A stretch of 64,000 bases of DNA from Chloroflexota bacterium (GTDB lineage Bacteria; Chloroflexota; Dehalococcoidia; JACPQD01), in assembly GCA_016190665.1 (NCBI GenBank), contig JACPQD010000079.1, positions 1 to 64,000 on the forward strand, given 5' to 3'. Shown here piece after piece: positions 4,225-20,799 of this stretch; the stretch's first letter is position 1, and each line of letters starts with the position of its first letter. A program made the position numbers and the translations under genes. Under the pieces are notes generated by a model. It saw only the letters and a program-made list of their open reading frames with translations, had not been told where the DNA came from and searched no databases.

Positions 4225-6096
4225 CTACGGCCACAGGTCCCTGGCCACGTGCTCCAATCCCAAGGACCTGAGCGTCTCCGGCAACGGCCTGCCACTCAGG
4301 CGGTCCCAGCCCATGTCGCGGTAGTAGATGTCCAGCATCTTCTCCCACTCGGGCGCGATGGACTTCCCGGCCCCTGGTCCATCCACAGGAGTCGAGCCGT
4401 ACCTCGGTGACGGATTATCCAGGCCCGGATGGTGCCCGTGCCGGACGTTGAAGGCCCGAAGCAGGTTGGCGAATTTGCGACCGGAGGCATTGCCTTCTTC
4501 AGGGGTGTAGTCCCAGCCCGTCGCCGCCTGCATGAACTCCGCCAGCCGCTGCATCCGGCTATCCGTGGTGAAACGGCACACGCCCAATGAGTCCTCGAAG
4601 GGCATGATGCCCCGGACCGCGGCCACTATCCGGGCTATCTCCTCGCCAGCGAAATTGCTGCTCAGAGGCGGTATGCCGAACATCTTGGGGTCCGCTTTGG
4701 TGCCCGATTCCACGGTGCTGGTATCCGAGACGCAGGTGTCAAACATGTGAAACCACAGAGTGCGGTGGTCATGGCCACGGGGAACGATGCCCTTCATGGT
4801 ATGAACGCCGATGTTAAGCGCCTCGCCGCCTATGGCTTGTGCGGCGCGCATCACGCCCTCGGCGAGGACATCCCCGAAGCCCTCTCGATAGGCGATCTTC
4901 CTGAGCATGGCGCGAACGGCAGGCACGTTGCCCCAGGTCATCTCCAGACCATCGGTGTCCTTCCTCGTCAGCAGCCCCTTCTCGTAGCACTCCACGACCA
5001 TCGAAATTAGAAACCCGGCCTCATTGGTATCGAAACCCAGGCGGTCCACCTCGTTGCTGAGGACGATGCTGGCCGCGACGTCGCTATTTCCTATCAGGGG
5101 GCCCCAAGCGGCGAAACACTCGTATTCGGGCTCTTCGCCGACGAAGCCAGCGTAAGGCCCGTCCGGAATGCGCAAGATGTGGCAATGGTGTGTGGGACAG
5201 GCCCAGCAAGTGTGGCGCTTGGCCTGGAAATGGTCCCTGATGTACTCGCTCCCGAACTTGTTGAGGTCATCAGGGCTGATAGCCCAGGTATTCGTGGTGT
5301 AGTTCTTGATGGGGAGGGCGCCCGACTTTTCATAGCGGCGCACGCCCTCCAGCGTCCCGGTGTAGTAGCGGACGCTCCAGGCTTTCTCCGTCCTCATCTT
5401 CTCCATCAGGTCCCGGGCCAGCTCGCCGAGGCGCTTGCTGTCCGCCACCGGAATACGGCCTTTGCCCCGGGCCACGGCCACCGCCTTAAGCCTCTTGAAC
5501 CCCATGACCGCGCCCACGCCGTTGTGCGCTGCGGCGTGGCCTTTGTCCCCGACGATGGCGGCGAACCTTACGAGGTTCTCCCCCGCCGGGCCGATGCCAA
5601 AAACGCTCAACTCCGCTTCCTTCGCCCCCAGCTCGGCCTTGATGAGGTCCTCGATCTCCCAGGTATCCTTGCCGACCAGCGCTGAGGCATCTCGAAGCTC
5701 AGCGGCGCCATCGTGGACAAACAGGTACTGCCAGCGCTCAGCGCGACCCTGCACAATTATGCCATCGAAGCCAGAGAACTTGAGGTAAGCGCCAAAGAAG
5801 CCGTTGGCCTGGGTTGAGGTAGCGCCATTGGTGATGGGCCCCTTAGTAACCACGGAGAACGTCCCCGAGCCGCAGACGCTGGTTCCGGCGAGCGGGCCAG
5901 TGGCCATGACGAGACGATTCTCCGGGTCGGACCACGCCACCCCTGGAGGCACTTCCTCATAGAGGACCTTCGACCCGAAGCCGGTGCCTCCCAGGTACTT
6001 ACGCAGCGTGGCCTCGTCCGGAGACTCCTCGCTGATCCTGCCTGAACTCAAGTCGACACTGAGGAACTTGCCGGCGTAGCCGGGAACTGGCGCCAT
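4225..6096 (-). CDS. Aldehyde:ferredoxin oxidoreductase family (tungsten/molybdenum)
   Basis: A 623-residue member of the AOR family, full length for the family (about 600-620). It has the N-terminal pterin-binding domain (YAGKFLSVDLSSG, KYLGGTGFGSKVLYEE), and the [4Fe-4S] ligand cluster at C297, C300 and C305 (CWACPTHHC) with a distal Cys near residue 505 (SLGVCRFT). The spacing of the second and third ligands is C-x4-C rather than the C-x3-C of the archaeal enzymes; this occurs in bacterial paralogues. It oxidises an aldehyde or similar substrate with ferredoxin as acceptor in the cytoplasm. No partner electron-transfer gene adjoins it. Confidence 0.9.
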   Translation of the reverse strand: MAPVPGYAGKFLSVDLSSGRISEESPDEATLRKYLGGTGFGSKVLYEEVPPGVAWSDPENRLVMATGPLAGTSVCGSGTFSVVTKGPITNGATSTQANGFFGAYLKFSGFDGIIVQGRAERWQYLFVHDGAAELRDASALVGKDTWEIEDLIKAELGAKEAELSVFGIGPAGENLVRFAAIVGDKGHAAAHNGVGAVMGFKRLKAVAVARGKGRIPVADSKRLGELARDLMEKMRTEKAWSVRYYTGTLEGVRRYEKSGALPIKNYTTNTWAISPDDLNKFGSEYIRDHFQAKRHTCWACPTHHCHILRIPDGPYAGFVGEEPEYECFAAWGPLIGNSDVAASIVLSNEVDRLGFDTNEAGFLISMVVECYEKGLLTRKDTDGLEMTWGNVPAVRAMLRKIAYREGFGDVLAEGVMRAAQAIGGEALNIGVHTMKGIVPRGHDHRTLWFHMFDTCVSDTSTVESGTKADPKMFGIPPLSSNFAGEEIARIVAAVRGIMPFEDSLGVCRFTTDSRMQRLAEFMQAATGWDYTPEEGNASGRKFANLLRAFNVRHGHHPGLDNPSPRYGSTPVDGPGAGKSIAPEWEKMLDIYYRDMGWDRLSGRPLPETLRSLGLEHVARDLWP

Positions 6097-7504: not shown

Positions 7505-7660
7505 AAAGCTGGCGTCCGGGAGGGCTGCCTCTCCTTCTATGCCTACGAGGTTAGCTGACGGGTTCGGCCGAAAGGAGTTAGCCTATCCGCCCAAGGCGGA
7601 ATTCACCCCAAGATTTGGGTCCCCCGCTCCTCTTTCGAGGACTCGGCTCACTATTCTTTT
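7505..7660 (-). ncRNA. Cyclic di-AMP riboswitch (ydaO/yuaA type)
   Basis: The minus strand carries the hallmark conserved segment CCGAACCCGTCAGCTAACC followed by TCGTAGGC (7543-7569), and upstream GGGGGACCC ... TTGGGGTGAATTCCGC (about 7598-7626), both typical of the ydaO c-di-AMP aptamer. The terminator follows directly, so ligand binding should stop transcription into the Cys-rich and BON-domain genes. A promoter ends about ten bases before the aptamer. Identification rests on motif recall, not on a covariance-model search. Confidence 0.85.
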
Positions 7661-10467: not shown

Positions 10468-11928
10468 CTAGCGTGCAGGATCCAGACGATCCCAAAGGTT
10501 CTCGGCCAGCGCGTTCAGGTCCAGACCCTCTGGAATTTCGGGTTCCGTCGGACAGCTCGTGAGCGGGAATCTGTTTGTGCCGACCATCGCAACTCGCCCG
10601 GGGAATGACGGCACAAATCCAAGCAATAGGAAAAGCCACCAAGCGAGATTACTGGGGGGACGCATTGCCTCCTCCAAACTCTGTTTCGAAGACCAGATTG
10701 GCCAGTCAGGCCCTTGGTGTGATTGATGAGTTCCTTCGTCCCTAAGGACGGGGTTCATCAACACGCCGAGTCTCTCCTGGGCTAGGTGAACGGCCTGCTC
10801 CCACTGAATTCGCTCGTCCTTCCCTGCGACAACAACGACTTTTTGCTCCGCTAGCTCTGCCAAGTAATGCACTGCGGCTATCGACAGCGCGGGCCGCAGA
10901 AAATCGAGAGTTGGATTTGTCTTGATGTCCTCCTTGACTTTGTCCTCATAATCCTTATTGTTGATTGCCAACATCTGTTCCAGCTTCAACCTCGAAGCTA
11001 TTGTCCGAAATCCAGCTTGTACTTTGGGATAGTCTTTGAATGACGGGGCAAAGAGCTCAGATAAGCAGAGTGTTTCGTGCGGGTTGACTCCCCTTGACTG
11101 AACATAGCGAAGTAATTTCTGCTGAAATCTCTCGCAATCGGTGCGACTGTAGTTCCTGTTAGCCCCAGCACCGCAATCAGCTATAAGAAGCGTCACCCGC
11201 CATCCCAACAGGGCAAGAAGCCTGATCAGCTCAGTCTGCCCCCTGTGGATAACCGTAACAACGTTTCTTGGCACTACTGGCCAAACGACAACTGAAGGAC
11301 TAGCTAGATTCGTGAAAGCCAAGTTGTAGACCTCGATCCCGCCTAATTCGAGGTGAAGAGTGACCCATTTGGCCAAACCAACATCTGGGTTTTCATGGGC
11401 GTATGTTCGCCAGTCAAAAGAGTACAACTCCTGCTCGTTTGCCACTCCCTTCAGCGCACATTTTCCGACCGAGGCCAAGTATTTTTGGGTCTGAGTTGGC
11501 CCCCAGATCGCGCTCACTGCCTGGTAGAGATTGTTTCCGATCAATACTTCGCCCGGTTTAGCTGCGTCCCGCATACGCACCCCCCGGTTTACACCAGAAC
11601 CGAAAACATCGTCAGCAGTGGCGAACACAACTCCAAGCTCAATCCCAATTTTGATTTCAAGTGCTTGTCGACTGAGGCAAGGCTGTTTCAAATAGAACTC
11701 TTGGAGGTTCGACGACAGGCGCAGAGCATTTGTGGGATCCTCAAATTCAATGAGATATCCGTCTCCAGTGTTCTTAATGCCGGTTCCTCCAACCAAGTCT
11801 GCCATGCCTGTTATGACATCGAAATGATTCATCAGCTCTGGAACGTATGCATCATGCCCTAGGCCCTCTGTGAGTTCTGTGGAGCCCTTTAAGTCCGTGA
11901 ACATAATTACAGTTACCTTATTGGGCAT
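10468..11928 (-). CDS. Class III nucleotide cyclase fused to TyrRS/TrpRS-like domain
   Basis: A 486-residue two-domain protein. Residues 1-165 are a class III adenylate/guanylate cyclase domain with intact-looking catalytic features: first metal Asp in FTDLKGST, Lys and second metal Asp in KNTGDG, and VNRGVR with the transition-state Asn and Arg. Residues about 215-425 resemble a class I tRNA synthetase catalytic core of the Tyr/Trp type: HRGQ in the HIGH position, LLGWRVTLLIADCGA, SRGVNPHET, VVVAGKDERIQWEQAVHLA (the GxDQ region) and WSSKQS in the KMSKS position. No tRNA-binding domain is evident. It overlaps the radical SAM stop by 11 bases (ATGCCCAATAA), making a tight operon. Function is unknown. 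Confidence 0.75.
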   Translation of the reverse strand: MPNKVTVIMFTDLKGSTELTEGLGHDAYVPELMNHFDVITGMADLVGGTGIKNTGDGYLIEFEDPTNALRLSSNLQEFYLKQPCLSRQALEIKIGIELGVVFATADDVFGSGVNRGVRMRDAAKPGEVLIGNNLYQAVSAIWGPTQTQKYLASVGKCALKGVANEQELYSFDWRTYAHENPDVGLAKWVTLHLELGGIEVYNLAFTNLASPSVVVWPVVPRNVVTVIHRGQTELIRLLALLGWRVTLLIADCGAGANRNYSRTDCERFQQKLLRYVQSRGVNPHETLCLSELFAPSFKDYPKVQAGFRTIASRLKLEQMLAINNKDYEDKVKEDIKTNPTLDFLRPALSIAAVHYLAELAEQKVVVVAGKDERIQWEQAVHLAQERLGVLMNPVLRDEGTHQSHQGPDWPIWSSKQSLEEAMRPPSNLAWWLFLLLGFVPSFPGRVAMVGTNRFPLTSCPTEPEIPEGLDLNALAENLWDRLDPAR

Positions 11929-13105
11929 TTGATTGACCTCCCCCGGACCTGTCCGGCGCGTTCAAATATCTTGTAGCGTGACAGCCCATATTCACCTGTC
12001 TAACAATTTCGCCCGTTCGTGGGCGACGGGGCGTTTGGGAGTCAATGACTACTTTTTGTGGTCTCTGGTTTGATTCAGTATGAAACGTACCGTCGGGTGC
12101 CACGAGTATCACAGAGTTCACTATTCTGTTGGATTCTGTCTGGACCGCCATCTCTCGTTTCCAGAACTTCTCTTGCGCTTCGTGCACTTTGTCAGACACA
12201 TATTCCCAGGCCTTGGGGGACAGACTCAACTTCCTGTACCAATCCATGTTCTTACTTGACGGGGCGATCTGAAGAATTCGCCACGAGCGAACGCCCAGCC
12301 GGTAGAGCTTATCTCCAAAAGCCACCAAGTCAGTGGCGGTCTTGTTAGTTGCGACCGTTTGTATCGTTACAGTTAGGCCCGCATCCAATGACCTGCAGAT
12401 CGCATCTAAGGCACTGGCACTGGTGGAAGGGGTATGCGAACGAAAAGGTCTTTCAAGAAGACGTCTGAGAAACTCGTTGACCTTCGGGCGCTCCGAGTCA
12501 AGTGAGATACGGACCGCGACATTGTGTGTGGCGAAGAGGTCAATATGATGGTCCTTGAGGCCATAACCGTTTGTGTCGACAACGATGCCCACCTTTCCAC
12601 TCAAGTAATTGATCGCACGAGTGAGGTGGGGACTAACGAGGGGGTCGCCCCCCGTAATCACCACAACCAAAGGATCGAAGCTCAGGATTGCCTCAGCAAT
12701 CGACTTGATGTCGCTGGCGTTGGTTGGCTCACCCTTTTCACCCCTCATCAAGTCCTCGGCATAGCAGTATCGACACTTGAGTTGGCAGATTCCCGTTATG
12801 AGCCAGTTGATAACGATTGGCCTCGACACTGCGGGTACGGTATTCCAGGCTTCTCTATTTGGAAGGAGATTGGTCGATGGGTGCTGGGCAAGATGGACAG
12901 GCCTCGCCCAGCCTGCTCCCAGACAATTGTCATATTCCTGACAGGGCGGTAGGGGCAAGCTACGGTCAAGCCACTGCCTCACATCCGTCTTCTCTGATGA
13001 ATCAACCGCATAGACAAGACCGGTGTAGGGCGAATAAGCGAGGAGTCCAAAGCCTGGGTCATCCCGCACTATGATTCCGCTTTGCGTTAACACCGTTCTT
13101 TCCAC
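11918..13105 (-). CDS. Radical SAM enzyme, second gene of cyclase operon
   Basis: A 395-residue radical SAM protein. The cluster-binding motif is C107-x3-C111-x2-C114 (CQLKCRYCYAE), followed by ITGGDPL (the GGE-like motif, here GGD) and VDTNG. About 90 residues precede the motif, including YSPYTGLVYAVD, recalling N-terminal domains of peptide-modifying radical SAM enzymes. A short Cys-poor tail argues against a full SPASM domain. It lies 6 bases after the methyltransferase gene and overlaps the cyclase-synthetase gene. The substrate is unknown; a small molecule, a peptide or a tRNA are all possible. Confidence 0.85.
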   Translation of the reverse strand: MERTVLTQSGIIVRDDPGFGLLAYSPYTGLVYAVDSSEKTDVRQWLDRSLPLPPCQEYDNCLGAGWARPVHLAQHPSTNLLPNREAWNTVPAVSRPIVINWLITGICQLKCRYCYAEDLMRGEKGEPTNASDIKSIAEAILSFDPLVVVITGGDPLVSPHLTRAINYLSGKVGIVVDTNGYGLKDHHIDLFATHNVAVRISLDSERPKVNEFLRRLLERPFRSHTPSTSASALDAICRSLDAGLTVTIQTVATNKTATDLVAFGDKLYRLGVRSWRILQIAPSSKNMDWYRKLSLSPKAWEYVSDKVHEAQEKFWKREMAVQTESNRIVNSVILVAPDGTFHTESNQRPQKVVIDSQTPRRPRTGEIVRQVNMGCHATRYLNAPDRSGGGQSNAQ

Positions 13106-13111
13106 TCTCGC

Positions 13112-14389
13112 TTACCGGCTCAGATGAATAAGATATTTCCCGTGCTTTGCTCTCACTCCACGAGCTCGCGGGTTCTTTGTGCCAATGTGGAAGTATTCGC
13201 CCAACTGAGTTAACTCGGCGGTAAATCCGAGCTTTGTCCATGTCTCCAGGACAACTTCAGCTACGGGAACAACTCTACCTCTGTGAGTGTTATTGACAAC
13301 AACAATATAACCTTCGAATTCCTCTCCGAGCGCATGATTGATGTTCCCAAATGCCTGCTCCAAATCAGAAAAATAGTTCTCAAAGTAGGGCAAGTAGTAA
13401 CCTTGGTCGTCTTTAATAGCGCGCTGGGAACGCTTTAGCGTTTTGATAGTGTTGATGAACTGATTGGCCGCAGCAGATTCCGGCAATCGTACCTCACGGC
13501 CGGCGACGGTGTTGGAGCCGATAATGTGGCCCTCAACCTGTCTTAGGGGCATTTCGTGCGCTGGGAGAAGAGAGAGAAGCTCATTTTCGGGATCGAACAT
13601 CGAAGCCATATCGGTGCGATTGGGATAAGGAGGTGAGGTGACCATTGCACGAAAGCGCTTTTTGGGAAAGACAAACGTCCGCGCGTCACCGTACTGCAGT
13701 TCATGCACAGATGATTTCGATTTCTCACCTATGGCGTTCAGTCTGAAAGCCAACGCACGAAGATACAGTTCGAAATCTTCCTCCCATCCTCGAAACACGC
13801 ACATGCCCCCCTTCTTGACGTGCGGAGCCACATCAGCCGCGACAGAGCAGGAAAGGCGCCCGGCAAACGGCAATAGGAGAGCCACGGATAACTCACACGA
13901 ATTCTTGCCATCAAAAAACCTGCTGACGGCTCCTTGTATCAGGTGAAGAATCTCCTGAAGCAGCTCGCGTGATTCTTGGGGAAACCATTCGTCGGACGAC
14001 AACGCCCTTAATGTGGCTCGCGGCCAACGAGAACGCGATGAAAGAAGCGAGTTTACGCATTGAGCGAACTGTCCAGAATTGACTGGCTGACACAAGATTT
14101 GCCATAGATGTTGAGGAAGATTGAATTCAAGACAATATGAGCTAATCCCAAATTCCGCGCAATACGATGTGAGGAGGCCGTACCCAGCCATCGGGTCAAG
14201 GATCTCTCCTCTCGCTTGCAGGAGTTCGACCAGCGTGCGCTCCTCTTCAGTAAAAGCGGCGTACCCGCGTCCGGAGTTCAGCAGAGATCGATATATGTCC
14301 CGAATCAGCGTGGTACGCGTAAGAAAAGCGGGCCCGCTTGATTCGCGAGAGAGCCGCGTGCGGTTTGACACACCCATGCAGTTCACCAA
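13112..14389 (-). CDS. SAM-dependent methyltransferase (SPPY type), first gene of cyclase operon
   Basis: A protein of about 425 residues with the AdoMet-binding motif I ILDPMAGYG at residues 63-71 and the catalytic motif IV TSPPYPNRTD at 251-260, so the order is I then IV. The SPPY motif is typical of N4-cytosine and some N6-adenine DNA methyltransferases and of TRM11-like RNA enzymes. The 180 residues between motifs are unusual and might hold a target-recognition region. The start is a TTG at 14389 (11 bases after GGAGGA) or the ATG at 14377. It leads the three-gene operon. No restriction nuclease adjoins it, although an unrelated R-M pair lies 3.4 kb away. Confidence 0.75.
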   Translation of the reverse strand: MVNCMGVSNRTRLSRESSGPAFLTRTTLIRDIYRSLLNSGRGYAAFTEEERTLVELLQARGEILDPMAGYGLLTSYCAEFGISSYCLEFNLPQHLWQILCQPVNSGQFAQCVNSLLSSRSRWPRATLRALSSDEWFPQESRELLQEILHLIQGAVSRFFDGKNSCELSVALLLPFAGRLSCSVAADVAPHVKKGGMCVFRGWEEDFELYLRALAFRLNAIGEKSKSSVHELQYGDARTFVFPKKRFRAMVTSPPYPNRTDMASMFDPENELLSLLPAHEMPLRQVEGHIIGSNTVAGREVRLPESAAANQFINTIKTLKRSQRAIKDDQGYYLPYFENYFSDLEQAFGNINHALGEEFEGYIVVVNNTHRGRVVPVAEVVLETWTKLGFTAELTQLGEYFHIGTKNPRARGVRAKHGKYLIHLSR

Positions 14390-14519: not shown

Positions 14520-16781
14520 TCAGCAGGTACCGTAACCGCAGTATAGACACTTAACGCAGCCTTCTTCATACATTAGCAGGTTATTGCATTCTGGACACTG
14601 CCCCACCACATTTCGCAGCGAGGTCTTCATCGATTTCCGGCTTGCGCTGTTTTCGACATGGGCCTTGCGGTCCGCGAACTTCAGTAGCACCTTAGAAATC
14701 GCATCCGCACATGAGAGCACCTCCTTACCACCCTCCCCGAATTCCTTATACGGTGTGGGACACCGGATGGCCGAAAGATGTTTGATTATATCATCAACTG
14801 CCACACCTGATCGCAGTGCCAGTGAGATTAGTCGAGACGTAGACTCAAGTTGTGCCGCTGCGCAGCCGCCGGACTTTCCTAAGACCGAGAAGACCTCAAA
14901 TAGTCCTTGGTCGTCTAAGTTTACGGTCACGTACATGGAGCCGCATCCGGTGGTTATTTTCGTGGTGCTCCCCCGGAGGTCTTCTGTCAGACGTTCACGC
15001 GGCCCGATGCGTACACCTCCGTCTCGTGTCGGCTGCCCTATGGCTAAGGGTGCCTTACGGCACCCGTATCTAAAGATGGTAATGCCCTTCAACCCCCTCT
15101 CGTGGGCCAGCGTGAACGCCCGGGCGACTTCCTCTCTCGTCGCGGTGTTCGGGAAGTTGACCGTCTTTGATACCGCATTATGGACGTGCCGCTGGAACGC
15201 AGCCTGCACCTCAACATGGCGATCAGGTGCTACTTCGTGAGCAATAACACAGACCTTCTTTACGTCATCGGGGACTCCCTCAATATTTCTGAGTTGTTGC
15301 CCCTTGGCCAATAGTTCCATGAGTCTCGCGGAGTAGAATCCGCGAGACTCAGCCAACTTCTGGAAAGTTGGGTTCACCTCTAGAAGCGTGGGTCCGCCGT
15401 CCAGCGTTCGTTCGAACACGAGGCCGAAAAGAGGCTCAATTCCACTTGAGCATCCCGCTAGTATATTGAGCGTACCGGTCGGGGCAATGGTGGTGCAGGT
15501 CGCGTTTCTTCGTCTAGCGTCCGGAGAAGCGAGAGCAGTTCCCTCTACGGCCGGAAAGGCGCCGCGTTCCTTTGCCAACTCCATCGAAGCTTTGCATGCC
15601 TCCTCAGCTATGAAGCGCATGACTTCCGAGGCGGTCTCCACGGCTTCAGGCGAGTCATAGGGAATACCGAGCTGGATCAGCATATCAGCAAAACCCATTA
15701 CGCCTAGCCCAATTTTCCTTGTCCGTTTGGTCATTTCCTCAATCTGCGGCAAGGGAAACTTGTTCACGTCGATCACGTTATCAAGGAATCTCACCGCTAT
15801 CTTAACGGTCTGTGATAGTCTCGCATAATTGACTTGGGCGGTCCCATCAGTTGTTATCAGCATTCTTGCAAGATTGATGGAGCCTAAATTGCATGACTCG
15901 TAAGGTAGGAGAGGCTGCTCGCCACAGGGGTTGGTGCTTTCAATCATGCCCAGTTCGGGAGTAGGGTTGGCCCGGTTCATCTGATCAATGAAGATGACTC
16001 CGGGCTCACCGGTTTCCCAGGCCATATCCACTATTTCGTTGAACACATCCTGAGCATTCACTCGGCCAACTACCTCATTTGACCGTGGGTTTATGAGGTC
16101 ATACGCGCTCCCAGCTTTTACCGCTTCCATGAATGCATCAGTTAGAGCAACTGAGAGGTTGAAATTTTGGAGTGCGTTTGGGTCCTTCTTCGCCCTAATG
16201 AACTTGATAATGTCAGGATGGCTCGCATTGAGAATCGCGATGCTCGCCCCTCGACGCATGCCACCCTGTTTGACGATTCTGGTGGCAGTATCGAAGATAT
16301 CGATGAAGGAGACTGGGCCGCTCGCCGCACCGCCCGTAGAACCCACCATGTCATTTTCCGGACGCAGCTTCGAAAAAGAAAATCCGGTGCCGCCACCGCT
16401 CTTGTGAATGAGGGCGCAGTTCGTAACGGCCTCAAAAATGGATTCCATCGAATCCTCTATGGGCAGAACGAAGCAAGCCGAGAGTTGGCCCACGTCCCGA
16501 CCCGCATTCATCAAAGTGGGGGAGTTGGGCAGGAACTCCAGATTGGCCATCAATGTCCAGAATTCCTCCGCTCTAGCCGCCACATCTGCCTTGGGGTCGT
16601 AAATACGGTCCGCCGAAGCAACAGCGCGCGCGACACGGCGTAACATGGCCTCTGGTGTCTCAACGGTATTTCCTTGCGCGTCCTTCTTCAGATACCTTTT
16701 CTCTAAGACGCGGAGCGCATTGTTAGAGAAGCCGATCTTGGCTCCTTGCGCCTTTCCATTGTCCACATTTCGTCTCGCCAC
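14520..16781 (-). CDS. nrdJ: Adenosylcobalamin-dependent ribonucleotide reductase (class II)
   Basis: A 753-residue class II reductase that converts ribonucleotides to deoxyribonucleotides using adenosylcobalamin. The start chosen is a GTG preceded by GGGAGGTGAAGCC; an upstream in-frame start at 16850 lacks such a site. Visible features are the redox Cys in [11 protein letters not shown], the radical-site loop [21 protein letters not shown] with Asn, Cys and Glu, and [17 protein letters not shown]. The C-terminal tail has CPECNN and CLYCGYGTC, a zinc-ribbon-like end common in class II enzymes. No vitamin B12 riboswitch was recognised upstream. Confidence 0.95.
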
Positions 16782-17375
16782 GGCTTCACCTCCCGACGAA
16801 CGCCCTTTGCACGAATCTGCTAGTGCCTGGCATACTGGGAATAGGTGCACCCAGTCATATGTCGAACCATGACCTTCCTCTTACGAATTGGAAGACGCGG
16901 TCAAGGGGGAATTGACCGGCAACATGGTAGACCACTGGCACGAACTGTCAAGGTTCAGCAGCCCCAAACACGACGGTGGCGTGAGCAACGCACTTGAAAC
17001 CTCTAGTGGCCTGGTCTTGGGGGCTCTACTGACCGGTATTTCCGACATGAACTCTTGACAGGGCTATACCTAATCCGGAATTCCCCATTTCAGCTGTTGA
17101 TTGCCGGGAAGTCACGGCACGGCGCTATCTGGCGGCATTATAGGCTCCCGCTGTCTGGATTGTCAAGCAGCTTCTCGAACACTGCGGAATGTTGGGGACG
17201 TTCATCGCTGCTGCAACATGGCTACCGCCGCCGCTGCATGCCAGAGCGATGATAACCTGGGAAGCACGCGGCGCCCGCAGGCATACTCAAAAAGTATGTA
17301 AAAGGGAGACCGAACATCCTGTGTAAACTACTGGCAGAAGCGTATTCAACGCTGTCCCCACGTGGAGGCGACGCC
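16782..17375. promoter_or_regulatory. nrdJ upstream region with candidate promoter
   Basis: On the minus strand TTGACA (16951-16946), a 16-base spacer and TACCAT (16929-16924) form a plausible nrdJ promoter about 140 bases before the GTG. No NrdR-box pair or B12 riboswitch core was recognised. From 16952 to 17375 I see no gene or repeat. Confidence 0.45.
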
Positions 17376-17621: not shown

Positions 17622-17727
17622 GCCGTTCCACTTCGACTTCTCGCTCCCTTCTCCGATTCGCTTGCGTTCTTCGGAGTCTTCGACTTCCCGCTCCGTGCTT
17701 CTCGCTTCTTGCTTCGTCTCCCCTGCA

Positions 17728-17778
17728 TCGTATACGCTGAGTTAAACGTCACGTACTCCTCGGTGGTCGCAGCCCCAG
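17728..17778 (-). repeat. Duplicated argJ 3'-end fragment (left boundary of R-M island)
   Basis: The 51 bases repeat the last coding bases of argJ at 19584-19636 with a few substitutions and a short deletion. On the minus strand both spell TEEYVTFNSAYT, and CGTATACGCTGA and TTAAACGTCAC are shared. The restriction-modification genes lie exactly between the two copies. Confidence 0.8.
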
Positions 17779-17794
17779 TCGCGGGCTGGACGAC

Positions 17795-18460
17795 TTAACT
17801 CTCTGACTTCTCTTCCCATTGATGCTTGACCTTTTCGAAGTAGGAGATACGATCTCGAATCTTCCCGATCTCCTTCGGATAGAACTCAAGCATGATCTCG
17901 CACAGCTCGATCATCCATTTCTTCCGAGAGTAGCTTTCGTTGATATGAATGCTGTTTGCGTTGGCGATCTGTATCTGTCCCCAGCCTAACGCGCCGACGG
18001 TCAAACAGTCCCATGACAGGAATTCAATTGGAAAGAAATGTACCTCTTTGACCAGCGCTTCTGTCTGTTCAAGAGTGTGCTTGACCATCAATACAACAAA
18101 GTAGTTCTTGTCGTCTTGATAGAACCGGGCAAGCCTTTCGACTGATGTCAAATTCGGCATGTTGAAGTGGGTTTCCATTCTGTGTGTTTTCACGTCCACG
18201 ACATAGTAGAATCCATCCGTGTCGGTGAACGCGAGGTCGGCCATTGCCCGGCGCGCGAACTCCGCTGAGTATTCCACGCACAAGCCCGGGATCAGTGACT
18301 GAAATCGTTCGGAGAGTATTGCCTGAATCGCATCACCCGCGGCCCTGGGGCTTGCAGCCGTTCTCGAAGATAAGAAATCAGGTTGCGAATTAAGAAGCGC
18401 CGCGATCGCGTTTTCGACTGACTTGTGCTGGTGCGTGTAGAAAATCTGACTTCTGCTCAC
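17795..18460 (-). CDS. Type II restriction endonuclease
   Basis: A 221-residue protein encoded directly after a DNA methyltransferase. The probable PD-(D/E)XK core is ADLAFTDTDGFYYVVDVKTH (residues about 90-110): an Asp, then D-V-K. The following FNMPNLTSVERLARFYQDDKNYFVV is a conserved stretch I associate with a family of type II enzymes, though I cannot name the recognition sequence. Its ATG overlaps the methyltransferase stop (4 bases). The pair lies on an island bounded by a duplicated argJ end, with base composition visibly less G+C-rich than argJ, indicating acquisition by transfer. Confidence 0.8.
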   Translation of the reverse strand: MSRSQIFYTHQHKSVENAIAALLNSQPDFLSSRTAASPRAAGDAIQAILSERFQSLIPGLCVEYSAEFARRAMADLAFTDTDGFYYVVDVKTHRMETHFNMPNLTSVERLARFYQDDKNYFVVLMVKHTLEQTEALVKEVHFFPIEFLSWDCLTVGALGWGQIQIANANSIHINESYSRKKWMIELCEIMLEFYPKEIGKIRDRISYFEKVKHQWEEKSES

Positions 18461-19464
18461 GGCATTTCTTCCCGGTAAGCACCAAGCAGTGGTAACTCGG
18501 CCTGAGTCTCGCTGTCTTTCCAGACACGTCTAGGGCGCTGAAGCGAGTTTCGCTCCCAGAATACCCCCTCGCCGTAGCCCTGTATTGTCTTGTCGCGGTC
18601 TGCCATAGCCAACCGCTTCTCCGCAAGACAGCAGTATTCTACATCGAGTTCTACACCCACATATCTTCTTTCGAGTTTCTTGGCCACGACCGAAGTCGTG
18701 CCCGAACCCAGGAAAGGATCGAGAACCAGGTCGCCTGGACGGGAACTCGCGAGCAAGATTTTCGCCAGAAGTTTTTCTGGTTTCTGGGTGGGGTGGTCGG
18801 TATTCTCTCGCATTGACCAAAATGGTATTGTCAGGTCTGTCCACATATTGGACGGATGCGTGAGACGATAGTTTCCGTTTTCAGTCCTCTCCCAGTCTTT
18901 AGGCTCACCCTGTGAATCCGTATAGGGCGCGACAACTCGGCGCTTGAGCTTCACCGCATCCGTATTGAAGGTATACGCCTCCGATGCCGTGCAGAACCAG
19001 ACATCCTCGGAGCAATTCTTCCAGTTCGCTGTTGCCCCTCTTCCCTTCTCCCGTTCCCACGTGATCCGGTTTCGCACAATAAGGTATTTCTGAGCGACGA
19101 GGTGAATCGCAGTCGAAGACCTCCAATCAGAGCAAATATATACTGATGCCGAAGGCTTGAGCGTTCTCAGGAGCTTAGGAAACCAGCCTTCAAACCATTG
19201 TCTGTATTGGTCGGTTGACCGCTCTCTAAACAGCGACCCATTGAAGTCCTTGGTCATGTTATATGGCGGGTCTATGAATAAGAGATCTACAAATGAACCG
19301 GGTAGCCAATCGATAATCTCAAAAAGGTCCTGGTTGATCGTCCGATTTTCGATACTCTGCGGCTGCACGGGGCCATGGAGTCTGAGCAGACTCCGCTTGT
19401 AGAACGGGAGGTCCTGCGCTGACAAACTCGTTGTCCTGTTTCTTGGCGCCCTCAATTCACTCAT
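18457..19464 (-). CDS. DNA adenine/cytosine methyltransferase (beta class), type II R-M
   Basis: A 335-residue DNA methyltransferase starting at the ATG of MSELRAP (GGGAGCGAACCG upstream; a longer TTG reading to 19488 is possible). The catalytic motif DPPY is near the N-terminus (FIDPPYNMTKDFNG) and the AdoMet motif near the C-terminus (LDPFLGSGTTS), the beta-class order. HPTQKPEKLL and YVGVELDVEYC are typical. DPPY favours N6-adenine methylation. It protects the host from the downstream endonuclease; being placed first, it can act before the nuclease appears. Confidence 0.9.
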   Translation of the reverse strand: MSELRAPRNRTTSLSAQDLPFYKRSLLRLHGPVQPQSIENRTINQDLFEIIDWLPGSFVDLLFIDPPYNMTKDFNGSLFRERSTDQYRQWFEGWFPKLLRTLKPSASVYICSDWRSSTAIHLVAQKYLIVRNRITWEREKGRGATANWKNCSEDVWFCTASEAYTFNTDAVKLKRRVVAPYTDSQGEPKDWERTENGNYRLTHPSNMWTDLTIPFWSMRENTDHPTQKPEKLLAKILLASSRPGDLVLDPFLGSGTTSVVAKKLERRYVGVELDVEYCCLAEKRLAMADRDKTIQGYGEGVFWERNSLQRPRRVWKDSETQAELPLLGAYREEMP

Positions 19465-19578
19465 CGGTTCGCTCCCATGGTGCGGCAAATCAAAAGCTTG
19501 TGGTTACCAGTCGCACAAGCTCTGGCCTTGTTTTCCGTAGATACAAGCCAGGACCTTGTAACGTCTCTTGCTCCTCCC

Positions 19579-20799
19579 TCACGTCGTATACGCTGAATTA
19601 AACGTCACATACTCCTCGGTGAGGTCGCAGCCCCAGGCGGTGGCCCGGGCATGGCCCAGGTTCAGATTCAGACGGAAGAAGACCTCGGGGCGGCCCATGA
19701 CGGCGCGCGCCGCCGCCTCGTCGAAGGGCATCGGGCGGCCCGCTTTCATTAGACACGTGCTGTCGCCCAGGTAGAGGTCGATCCTGGCCTCCTCCAGATA
19801 GGCACCGCTCCGCCCCGCCGCCGCCACGATGCGGCCCCAGTTGGGGTCGCCGCCGTAGACCGCCGCCTTCACCAGGTTCGAGCCGACGATCGTCCGTGCG
19901 TGAAGGCGAGCGTCGCGCAAGGTGCGCGCCCCTTCCACCGTCACTTCGATGAACTTCGTGGCGCCCTCCCCGTCGTGGGCCATGGCTCTGGCCAGGTGGG
20001 CGCAGACCTGCGTCAGTCCGGCCTGGAAGGCGCGGCCCGCCTCGCCGCCCGCGACGGGCGCGTTGCCCGCCAGACCGTTGGCCAGGATGATGGCGGTATC
20101 GTTGGGGCTCATATCCCCGTCCACAGTGATCATGTTGAAGGAGACATCCACCGCCCGCTTCAAAGCTGTCTGCAGGAAATCGGGGTCGACGGCGGCGTCG
20201 GTGGCCAGGAAGCAGAGCATGGTGGCCATGTTCGGGTGGATCATGCCGGACCCTTTGGCGATGCCCCCGATGGTGACCTCTTTATCGCCTATCGTCAGCC
20301 CGAGGGCCACCTCCTTCGGCTTCGTATCGGTCGTCATGATGGCCCGTTCCAGCTCGTGGCCGCCGTCCCGTTTCAGCGCGATCTTGCCGATGTGGGCGCG
20401 CACCAGCTCCATAGGGATAGGCACGCCCACGACGCCGGTGCTGGCCACGAGGACGTCCTCCGTTGCCAGCTTCAGTTTCCGCGCCGCCAACTCGGCCATT
20501 TCCCGGGCGTCGGCCAGGCCGCTCTCGCCGGTGCAGGCGTTGGCGTGGCCGCTATTGATGATGACCGCCTGGGCGCGTCGGTCCGCCAGGTGCTGCTGGC
20601 ACACGAGTATGGGCGCTGACTTTATGAGATTGCTGGTGAAGACGCCGGCCGCGGCGCACGGCGCCTCCGAGTACAGTATGCCCAGATCACGCTGGTCGGC
20701 GCACTCCGTCTTGAGGCCGGCGTAGACCGCCCCGGCCAGAAAGCCTTTAGGCGTGGTCACGGTGCCGTTTGGGATAATCTTGAACTCAGCGTTTCTCAT
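19579..20799 (-). CDS. argJ: Bifunctional ornithine acetyltransferase / N-acetylglutamate synthase
   Basis: A 406-residue ArgJ, full length. The self-cleavage site is in HPNMATML, between A192 and T193, which frees the nucleophilic Thr of the beta chain; the preceding KGSGMI is also conserved. It recycles the acetyl group in arginine synthesis. No other arg genes adjoin it. The 3' end is intact although a copy of its last 50 or so bases sits beyond the restriction-modification island, so the insertion restored rather than broke the gene. Confidence 0.95.
   Translation of the reverse strand: MRNAEFKIIPNGTVTTPKGFLAGAVYAGLKTECADQRDLGILYSEAPCAAAGVFTSNLIKSAPILVCQQHLADRRAQAVIINSGHANACTGESGLADAREMAELAARKLKLATEDVLVASTGVVGVPIPMELVRAHIGKIALKRDGGHELERAIMTTDTKPKEVALGLTIGDKEVTIGGIAKGSGMIHPNMATMLCFLATDAAVDPDFLQTALKRAVDVSFNMITVDGDMSPNDTAIILANGLAGNAPVAGGEAGRAFQAGLTQVCAHLARAMAHDGEGATKFIEVTVEGARTLRDARLHARTIVGSNLVKAAVYGGDPNWGRIVAAAGRSGAYLEEARIDLYLGDSTCLMKAGRPMPFDEAAARAVMGRPEVFFRLNLNLGHARATAWGCDLTEEYVTFNSAYTT
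19584..19636 (-). repeat. argJ 3' end, right copy of island-flanking direct repeat
   Basis: This is the genuine C-terminal coding end of argJ. It matches 17728-17778 in direct orientation, so the restriction-modification genes (17795-19464) are bracketed by an imperfect repeat of about 50 bases. Confidence 0.8.

What the first reader, a model, noticed from the sequence alone, without database searches (positions are those of the whole stretch)
10468..14389. Three-gene operon: SPPY methyltransferase, radical SAM enzyme, and cyclase fused to a tRNA-synthetase-like domain
The genes are 6 bases apart or overlap, so they act together. The last encodes a class III nucleotide cyclase with its catalytic residues followed by a TyrRS/TrpRS-like catalytic core (HRGQ and WSSKQS in the HIGH and KMSKS positions, GKDERIQ in the GxDQ position) without a tRNA-binding domain. 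I know of no described system that joins a nucleotide-signal cyclase with an aminoacyl-adenylate-forming domain, a radical SAM enzyme and a base-methyltransferase-like enzyme. It may make an aminoacyl- or nucleotide-linked signal or modify nucleic acid as part of defence; an R-M pair lies nearby. Function is inference.
Basis: partly seen in the sequence, partly recalled or inferred. Interest (0 to 1): 0.85.

Follow-up and report, generated by a model that had tools for sequence, protein, structure and literature searches.

The report
Cyclase fused to dead TyrRS-like domain
A horizontally acquired three-gene operon joins a DNA-marking methyltransferase, a radical enzyme resembling the antiviral enzyme viperin, and a signal-making cyclase fused to what looks like a catalytically dead tyrosyl-tRNA synthetase; it is probably a phage-defence module of a kind not described before, but it is known from one genome only and its function is inferred.

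Summary
The three genes are real, tightly packed and of foreign composition (GC3 0.54-0.58 against 0.80-0.86 in two flanking host genes). Gene 3 has a class III cyclase half with all six canonical catalytic residues. Its C-terminal half matches no library model, but aligns co-linearly over 208 columns with a combined TyrRS/TrpRS profile (0 of 330 shuffles and 1 of 250 other ORFs score as high; that ORF is a CysRS). The catalytic claim is not supported: the KMSKS lysine, the GxDQ Gln and the Tyr/Gln/Asp amino-acid pocket are substituted, and WSSKQS does not fall on KMSKS. I read the domain as a pseudo-synthetase, more likely sensor than enzyme.

The radical SAM protein is viperin-like but outside the known prokaryotic viperin clade. 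The methyltransferase belongs to a Type II DNA methyltransferase family whose sampled relatives often sit beside REase, SIR2, DUF262-type or HerA/NurA genes; genes 2 and 3 occupy that effector position.

Best reading: a methyltransferase-marked defence operon with a nucleotide-signalling response. No second copy of the fusion was found anywhere searched, so co-occurrence could not be tested. Mechanism confidence about 0.4.

The parts
13112..14389 (-). Gene 1: SPPY-type DNA methyltransferase (425 aa, TTG start; ATG at 14377 is an alternative)
   Evidence: ORF; matches a 7-member family HMM at 4e-29, PADLOC MTase_II 3e-6, PHROG DNA methyltransferase 1e-7
14177..14197 (-). MTase SAM-binding motif DPMAGYG (residues 65-71)
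   Evidence: sequence
13625..13636 (-). MTase catalytic motif SPPY (residues 252-255)
   Evidence: sequence
11918..13105 (-). Gene 2: viperin-like radical SAM protein (395 aa, GTG start)
   Evidence: Pfam Radical_SAM 3e-14; best NCBIfam model viperin, 74 bits, below cut-off 180; PADLOC pVip 7e-23
12821..13105 (-). N-terminal extension of the rSAM (residues 1-95), unidentified, beta-rich in a low-confidence part of the model
   Evidence: no Pfam hit; model
12764..12787 (-). CxxxCxxC [4Fe-4S] motif (C107, C111, C114)
   Evidence: sequence, alignment
10468..11928 (-). Gene 3: class III cyclase / pseudo-TyrRS fusion (486 aa, ATG start)
   Evidence: ORF; same-frame coding signal in both halves
11419..11916 (-). 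Class III nucleotidyl cyclase domain (residues 5-170) with D12, K52, D56, D107, N114, R118
   Evidence: Pfam 1.8e-10, PDB Ma1120 2e-15, residues
10471..11418 (-). TyrRS/TrpRS-like domain (residues 171-486)
   Evidence: hhalign score 35.6 over 208 columns, 0 of 330 shuffles as high
11236..11256 (-). HIGH-position region TVIHRGQ (residues 225-231), degenerate
   Evidence: two alternative alignments
10813..10824 (-). GxDQ position: GKDE (residues 369-372)
   Evidence: alignment
10714..10728 (-). KMSKS position: HQSHQ (residues 401-405), both lysines lost
   Evidence: alignment
17137..17166 (-). 12/12 sigma-70-like promoter upstream of the island's ribonucleotide reductase gene; possible start of a transcript that includes the operon (inference)
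   Evidence: consensus scan; the total number of sites found is near chance

Best explanation
An anti-phage operon built on a DNA methyltransferase whose usual partner (restriction enzyme, SIR2, DUF262-type or HerA/NurA protein) is replaced by a nucleotide-signalling module. Step 1 (inferred): the SPPY methyltransferase marks host DNA as self. Step 2 (inferred): infection is sensed by the C-terminal pseudo-TyrRS domain of gene 3, which keeps the synthetase fold but has lost the residues for amino-acid binding and adenylation, and so serves as a ligand or tRNA sensor, much as a dead HisRS-like domain does in the kinase GCN2. Step 3 (inferred): this switches on the intact class III cyclase half, whose Lys/Asp pair suggests ATP as substrate. 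Step 4 (inferred): the viperin-like rSAM enzyme makes or modifies a nucleotide as the toxic or antiviral output. Shown by computation: the three genes, their packing and foreign composition, the intact cyclase, MTase and Fe-S motifs, the TyrRS/TrpRS-like fold with degraded catalytic motifs, and the defence contexts of the MTase family.
For: Fold and degeneracy of the C-terminal half. Cyclase intact. rSAM viperin-like: NCBIfam and PADLOC best models, end-to-end alignment with three pVips including the non-SPASM C-terminus, Foldseek target-normalised TM up to about 0.7 to viperins, grouping beside pVips in the tree with support 52/91. MTase relatives adjacent to REase (2.7e-116), SIR2_2, NsnA/GmrSD_N and HerA/NurA-like genes. 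Foreign low-GC island containing an R-M pair. Cyclase domains are known components of prokaryotic conflict systems (PMC7159879).
Against: No relative of the fusion in any genome searched, so no comparative support for the operon as a unit. No separate cyclic-nucleotide-binding effector is visible. The rSAM lies outside the known pVip clade and lacks the K-x-N-[ST]-V residues of the aligned pVips. No usable structural model of the C-terminal half (pLDDT 36). No functional data.
Confidence: 0.4

Rival explanations
1. Active aminoacyl- or nucleotidyl-transferring system: the C-terminal domain activates an amino acid or other acid with ATP, and with the rSAM and MTase makes a modified base or nucleotide-linked signal.
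For: Class I synthetase-like fold; the Asp and Gly of GxDQ, the Pro before HIGH and the Asp of the second strand are kept; HRGQ would keep His and Gly of HIGH in one alignment.
Against: KMSKS lysines absent at the aligned position; Gln of GxDQ and Tyr/Gln/Asp of the amino-acid pocket substituted.
Confidence: 0.12
2. Biosynthetic cluster for a small peptide or nucleoside product: the rSAM is a peptide maturase whose N-terminal extension is a peptide-recognition domain, with the cyclase fusion as regulator.
For: Foldseek best hits by E-value are the RiPP maturases SkfB and SuiB; the N-terminal extension is beta-rich in the model.
Against: No SPASM cysteines, no precursor peptide gene recognised, no Pfam match of the extension, no useful match to MftB; the MTase family is a DNA MTase family.
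Confidence: 0.13
3. No functional unit: cargo genes that happen to lie together in a foreign island, the MTase being an orphan that has lost its nuclease.
For: No second instance of the combination.
Against: 6-base gap and 11-base overlap on one strand, like codon-position composition, and open frames with intact catalytic motifs in MTase, rSAM and cyclase.
Confidence: 0.25
4. A Pycsar-type pyrimidine cyclase system.
For: Class III cyclase in a defence-like island.
Against: No PADLOC hit for the fusion; a Lys stands at position -4 of the second metal Asp, where EaPycC has Arg142 (PMC11224242); no PycTM or PycTIR effector gene.
Confidence: 0.04

Closest known systems
Class III nucleotidyl cyclases (Ma1120 / LipJ type)
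   Same: Whole catalytic domain and all six canonical residues
   Different: Fused to a TyrRS/TrpRS-like domain; no such fusion in the libraries or papers searched
TyrRS/TrpRS family of class I aminoacyl-tRNA synthetases
   Same: Co-linear fold signal over 208 columns; weak match at the C-terminal helix
   Different: Catalytic and amino-acid-pocket invariants substituted; not recognised by Pfam tRNA-synt_1b in the own-genome search
Prokaryotic viperins (pVips)
   Same: Barrel, N- and C-terminal motifs and lack of SPASM; fold
   Different: 74 bits against a cut-off of 180; outside the pVip clade; K-x-N motif changed; 95-residue N-terminal extension
Type II DNA methyltransferase family PDLC03224/PDLC03306
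   Same: Motifs, length and match to the HMM of its relatives
   Different: The neighbouring gene is not a restriction or SIR2/DUF262 gene but the rSAM and the cyclase fusion
Pycsar
   Same: Class III cyclase in a defence-like setting
   Different: No cognate effector, different base-pocket residues, no model hit
GCN2 (eIF2-alpha kinase)
   Same: Works-like analogy only, from general knowledge: a signalling enzyme fused to a dead synthetase-like sensor
   Different: Class II HisRS-like domain and a kinase, in eukaryotes; no homology claimed

Membership tests
Class III nucleotidyl cyclase | Guanylate_cyc domain over cut-off | tested here: met
   41.2 bits against 21.9
Class III nucleotidyl cyclase | Two metal Asp, base-specifying Lys/Asp, transition-state Asn and Arg | tested here: met
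   D12, D56, K52, D107, N114, R118
Functional TyrRS/TrpRS | Class I HUP catalytic core | tested here: met
   Profile test with shuffle and ORF controls; no solved structure or confident model
Functional TyrRS/TrpRS | KMSKS | tested here: not met
   HQSHQ at that position
Functional TyrRS/TrpRS | HIGH | tested here: inconclusive
   TVIH or HRGQ depending on the alignment
Functional TyrRS/TrpRS | YPxxQxxD amino-acid pocket | tested here: not met
   RPALSIAA
Viperin | NCBIfam NF038283 over cut-off | tested here: not met
   74.1 bits against 180; true pVips score 299-328
Viperin | Inside the pVip clade | tested here: not met
   Ten pVips form a 100/100 clade without it; it stands beside them at 52/91
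Viperin | Makes a ddhNTP | not testable with these tools
   needs an enzyme assay
Type II DNA methyltransferase (SPPY) | SAM motif and SPPY, family profile match | tested here: met
Type II R-M system | Cognate restriction endonuclease beside the MTase | tested here: not met
   neighbours are the rSAM and the cyclase fusion
Pycsar | PycC model hit and PycTM/PycTIR effector | tested here: not met
   no PADLOC hit for the fusion and no such neighbour

The most novel reading that the evidence does not exclude
A bacterial counterpart of GCN2: a class III cyclase gated by a dead TyrRS-like sensor of tRNA or aminoacylation state, serving as the alarm of a methyltransferase-marked defence operon whose output is a nucleotide made by a viperin-like enzyme outside the known viperin clade.
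Probability: 0.17. Interest if true: 0.88.

Novelty: new variant of a known kind. Interest (0 to 1): 0.6.

Why it matters
If right, it adds a new response module (second-messenger cyclase with a pseudo-synthetase sensor, plus a viperin relative) to methyltransferase-led defence operons, and would be the first cyclase known to me that is tied to a synthetase-like sensor. It would also give a deep relative of viperin outside its known clade.

Tried and rejected
Search for relatives of the fusion's C-terminal half: 400 genomes of the own phylum, 100 relatives, 247 and 246 genomes of two other phyla, plasmids, phages, viral contigs and GTDB contigs with two motif patterns: none. The bait alignments A1-A3 hold artificial conservative variants of the window protein, used only to widen the scan patterns. 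The GTDB scan with A1 used AGKDER[IVL]Q and WSSKQS[LIM]E, and the second motif later proved not to be KMSKS, so that scan is weaker than planned; the GTDB scan with A3 used one rSAM pattern and found 15 other rSAM loci with no MTase or cyclase nearby. Two weak genome hits were chance. Single-sequence AlphaFold2 of the fusion failed (pLDDT 36). Bacterial or archaeal TyrRS or TrpRS profiles taken one at a time were not significant; combined profiles were. GluRS and nucleotidyltransferase profiles gave no match. Paper searches for the fusion found nothing; the library holds only open-licence papers. Considered and rejected: Pycsar membership, viperin membership, reading WSSKQS as KMSKS.
Full report
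Observation. Their GC3 is 0.54-0.58, against 0.86 in ArgJ (19579-20799) and 0.80 in the aldehyde ferredoxin oxidoreductase gene (4225-6096) on either side; the dip in GC runs from about 11 to 19.5 kb and includes a ribonucleotide reductase gene and an R-M pair. Both halves of the fusion are open and show coding signal in the same frame.

Fusion, N-terminal half. Pfam Guanylate_cyc at 1.8e-10 over residues 7-169; nearest solved structure by sequence Ma1120, 2e-15. The two metal aspartates (D12, D56), the base-position lysine and aspartate (K52, D107) and the transition-state N114 and R118 stand at canonical spacings. The Lys at position -4 of the second Asp is the adenylate-type residue by general knowledge of the family; EaPycC has Arg142 there (PMC11224242). 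PADLOC gives no hit, so this is not filed as Pycsar.

Fusion, C-terminal half. No library recognises residues 171-486. I built TyrRS and TrpRS profiles from genomes of the own class, from eleven other genomes and from an archaeal phylum. A single TyrRS or TrpRS profile is not significant, but the score rises with profile breadth: 25.9 with bacterial TyrRS+TrpRS and 35.6, E 1.6e-4, 208 co-linear columns with all 74 sequences. None of 330 shuffles reaches this, and of 250 other ORFs from the session only one does, the CysRS in this window (44.9), a true class I synthetase; the next (29.2) looks like a nucleotidyltransferase by its motif, also a HUP protein. GluRS and nucleotidyltransferase profiles give nothing. 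The MAFFT alignment runs to the last residue, where LDLNALAENLWDRLDPAR matches the terminal helix of archaeal TyrRS; that piece alone is weak (7 of 300 shuffles as good). The single-sequence AlphaFold2 model is useless (pLDDT 36), so the fold claim rests on sequence profiles.

Catalytic state. Of the near-invariant columns, the GxDQ Asp (D371) and Gly (G369), the Pro before HIGH (P220), the second-strand Asp (D251) and two other prolines are kept. Lost are the KMSKS lysine (99%, H401), the GxDQ Gln (99%, E372), the Gly before the HIGH region (100%, P217), and the Tyr, Gln and Asp of YPxxQxxD (R345, S349, A352). WSSKQS lies 11 residues after the KMSKS-aligned HQSHQ. HIGH aligns with TVIH or HRGQ. 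I conclude pseudo-synthetase rather than an adenylate-forming enzyme; this is inference from the alignment of a single divergent sequence.

Radical SAM protein. NCBIfam's best model is viperin (74 bits, cut-off 180) and PADLOC's is pVip, 7e-23. Three of the loci found with it encode true pVips (299-328 bits), and it aligns with them end to end, including VINWLITGICQLKCRYCYAED against VVNWHLLEPCQLKCKYCYAEW and a SPASM-free C-terminus, but the K-x-N-[ST]-V stretch reads T-I-Q-T-V. A 28-row tree puts ten pVips in a 100/100 clade without it, and it stands beside them at 52/91, which is not strong. In the Foldseek search (model pLDDT 68) RiPP maturases come first by E-value and viperins have the best target-normalised TM, mostly 0.6-0.7. 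The 95-residue N-terminal extension is unidentified.

Methyltransferase. An HMM of seven distant relatives finds it at 4e-29. Five of those relatives were scanned and are best matched by PADLOC Type II MTase models; they sit beside defence-type genes: a Type II REase in the own genome (2.7e-116, 2 bases downstream), a SIR2_2 gene and a DUF262/NsnA gene (each overlapping by 4 bases), HerA- and NurA-like genes, and in one case SIR2- and DUF262-type genes a few kilobases away. In the window the neighbouring place is taken by the rSAM and the fusion. A sixth relative (L020) lies among cell-division genes and was not studied further.

Distribution. No relative of the fusion was found in the collections and genomes listed under 'tried and rejected'. 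The motif scans find close relatives only, so 'no second copy' means none at that sensitivity. Co-occurrence of the three genes therefore remains untested.

Verdict. A real, unusual and so far unique operon. The best-supported reading is a methyltransferase-led defence operon with a nucleotide-signalling response and a dead TyrRS-like sensor. The anatomy is shown by computation; the mechanism is inference at about 0.4.

Noticed in passing
17718-17786 and 19574-19644: Direct repeats of about 70 bases (86-88%) flank the R-M pair (17795-19488); the second copy is the 3' end of argJ, so the pair sits at a duplicated argJ end.
   Followed up: partly
14520-16850: A ribonucleotide reductase gene with the low GC3 (0.59) of the island lies 130 bases upstream of the operon on the same strand and has a 12/12 sigma-70-like promoter at 17166-17137; it may share the transcript.
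   Followed up: no
7524-7658: c-di-AMP riboswitch RF00379 on the minus strand, 100.7 bits, upstream of minus-strand ORFs including a BON-domain gene.
   Followed up: no
L021 6018-8365: The same genome holds a second member of the MTase family next to a Type II REase gene (PDLC03404, 2.7e-116).
   Followed up: partly
17795-18460: The R-M pair's nuclease candidate matches only weakly (PADLOC REase_II 7e-4).
   Followed up: no
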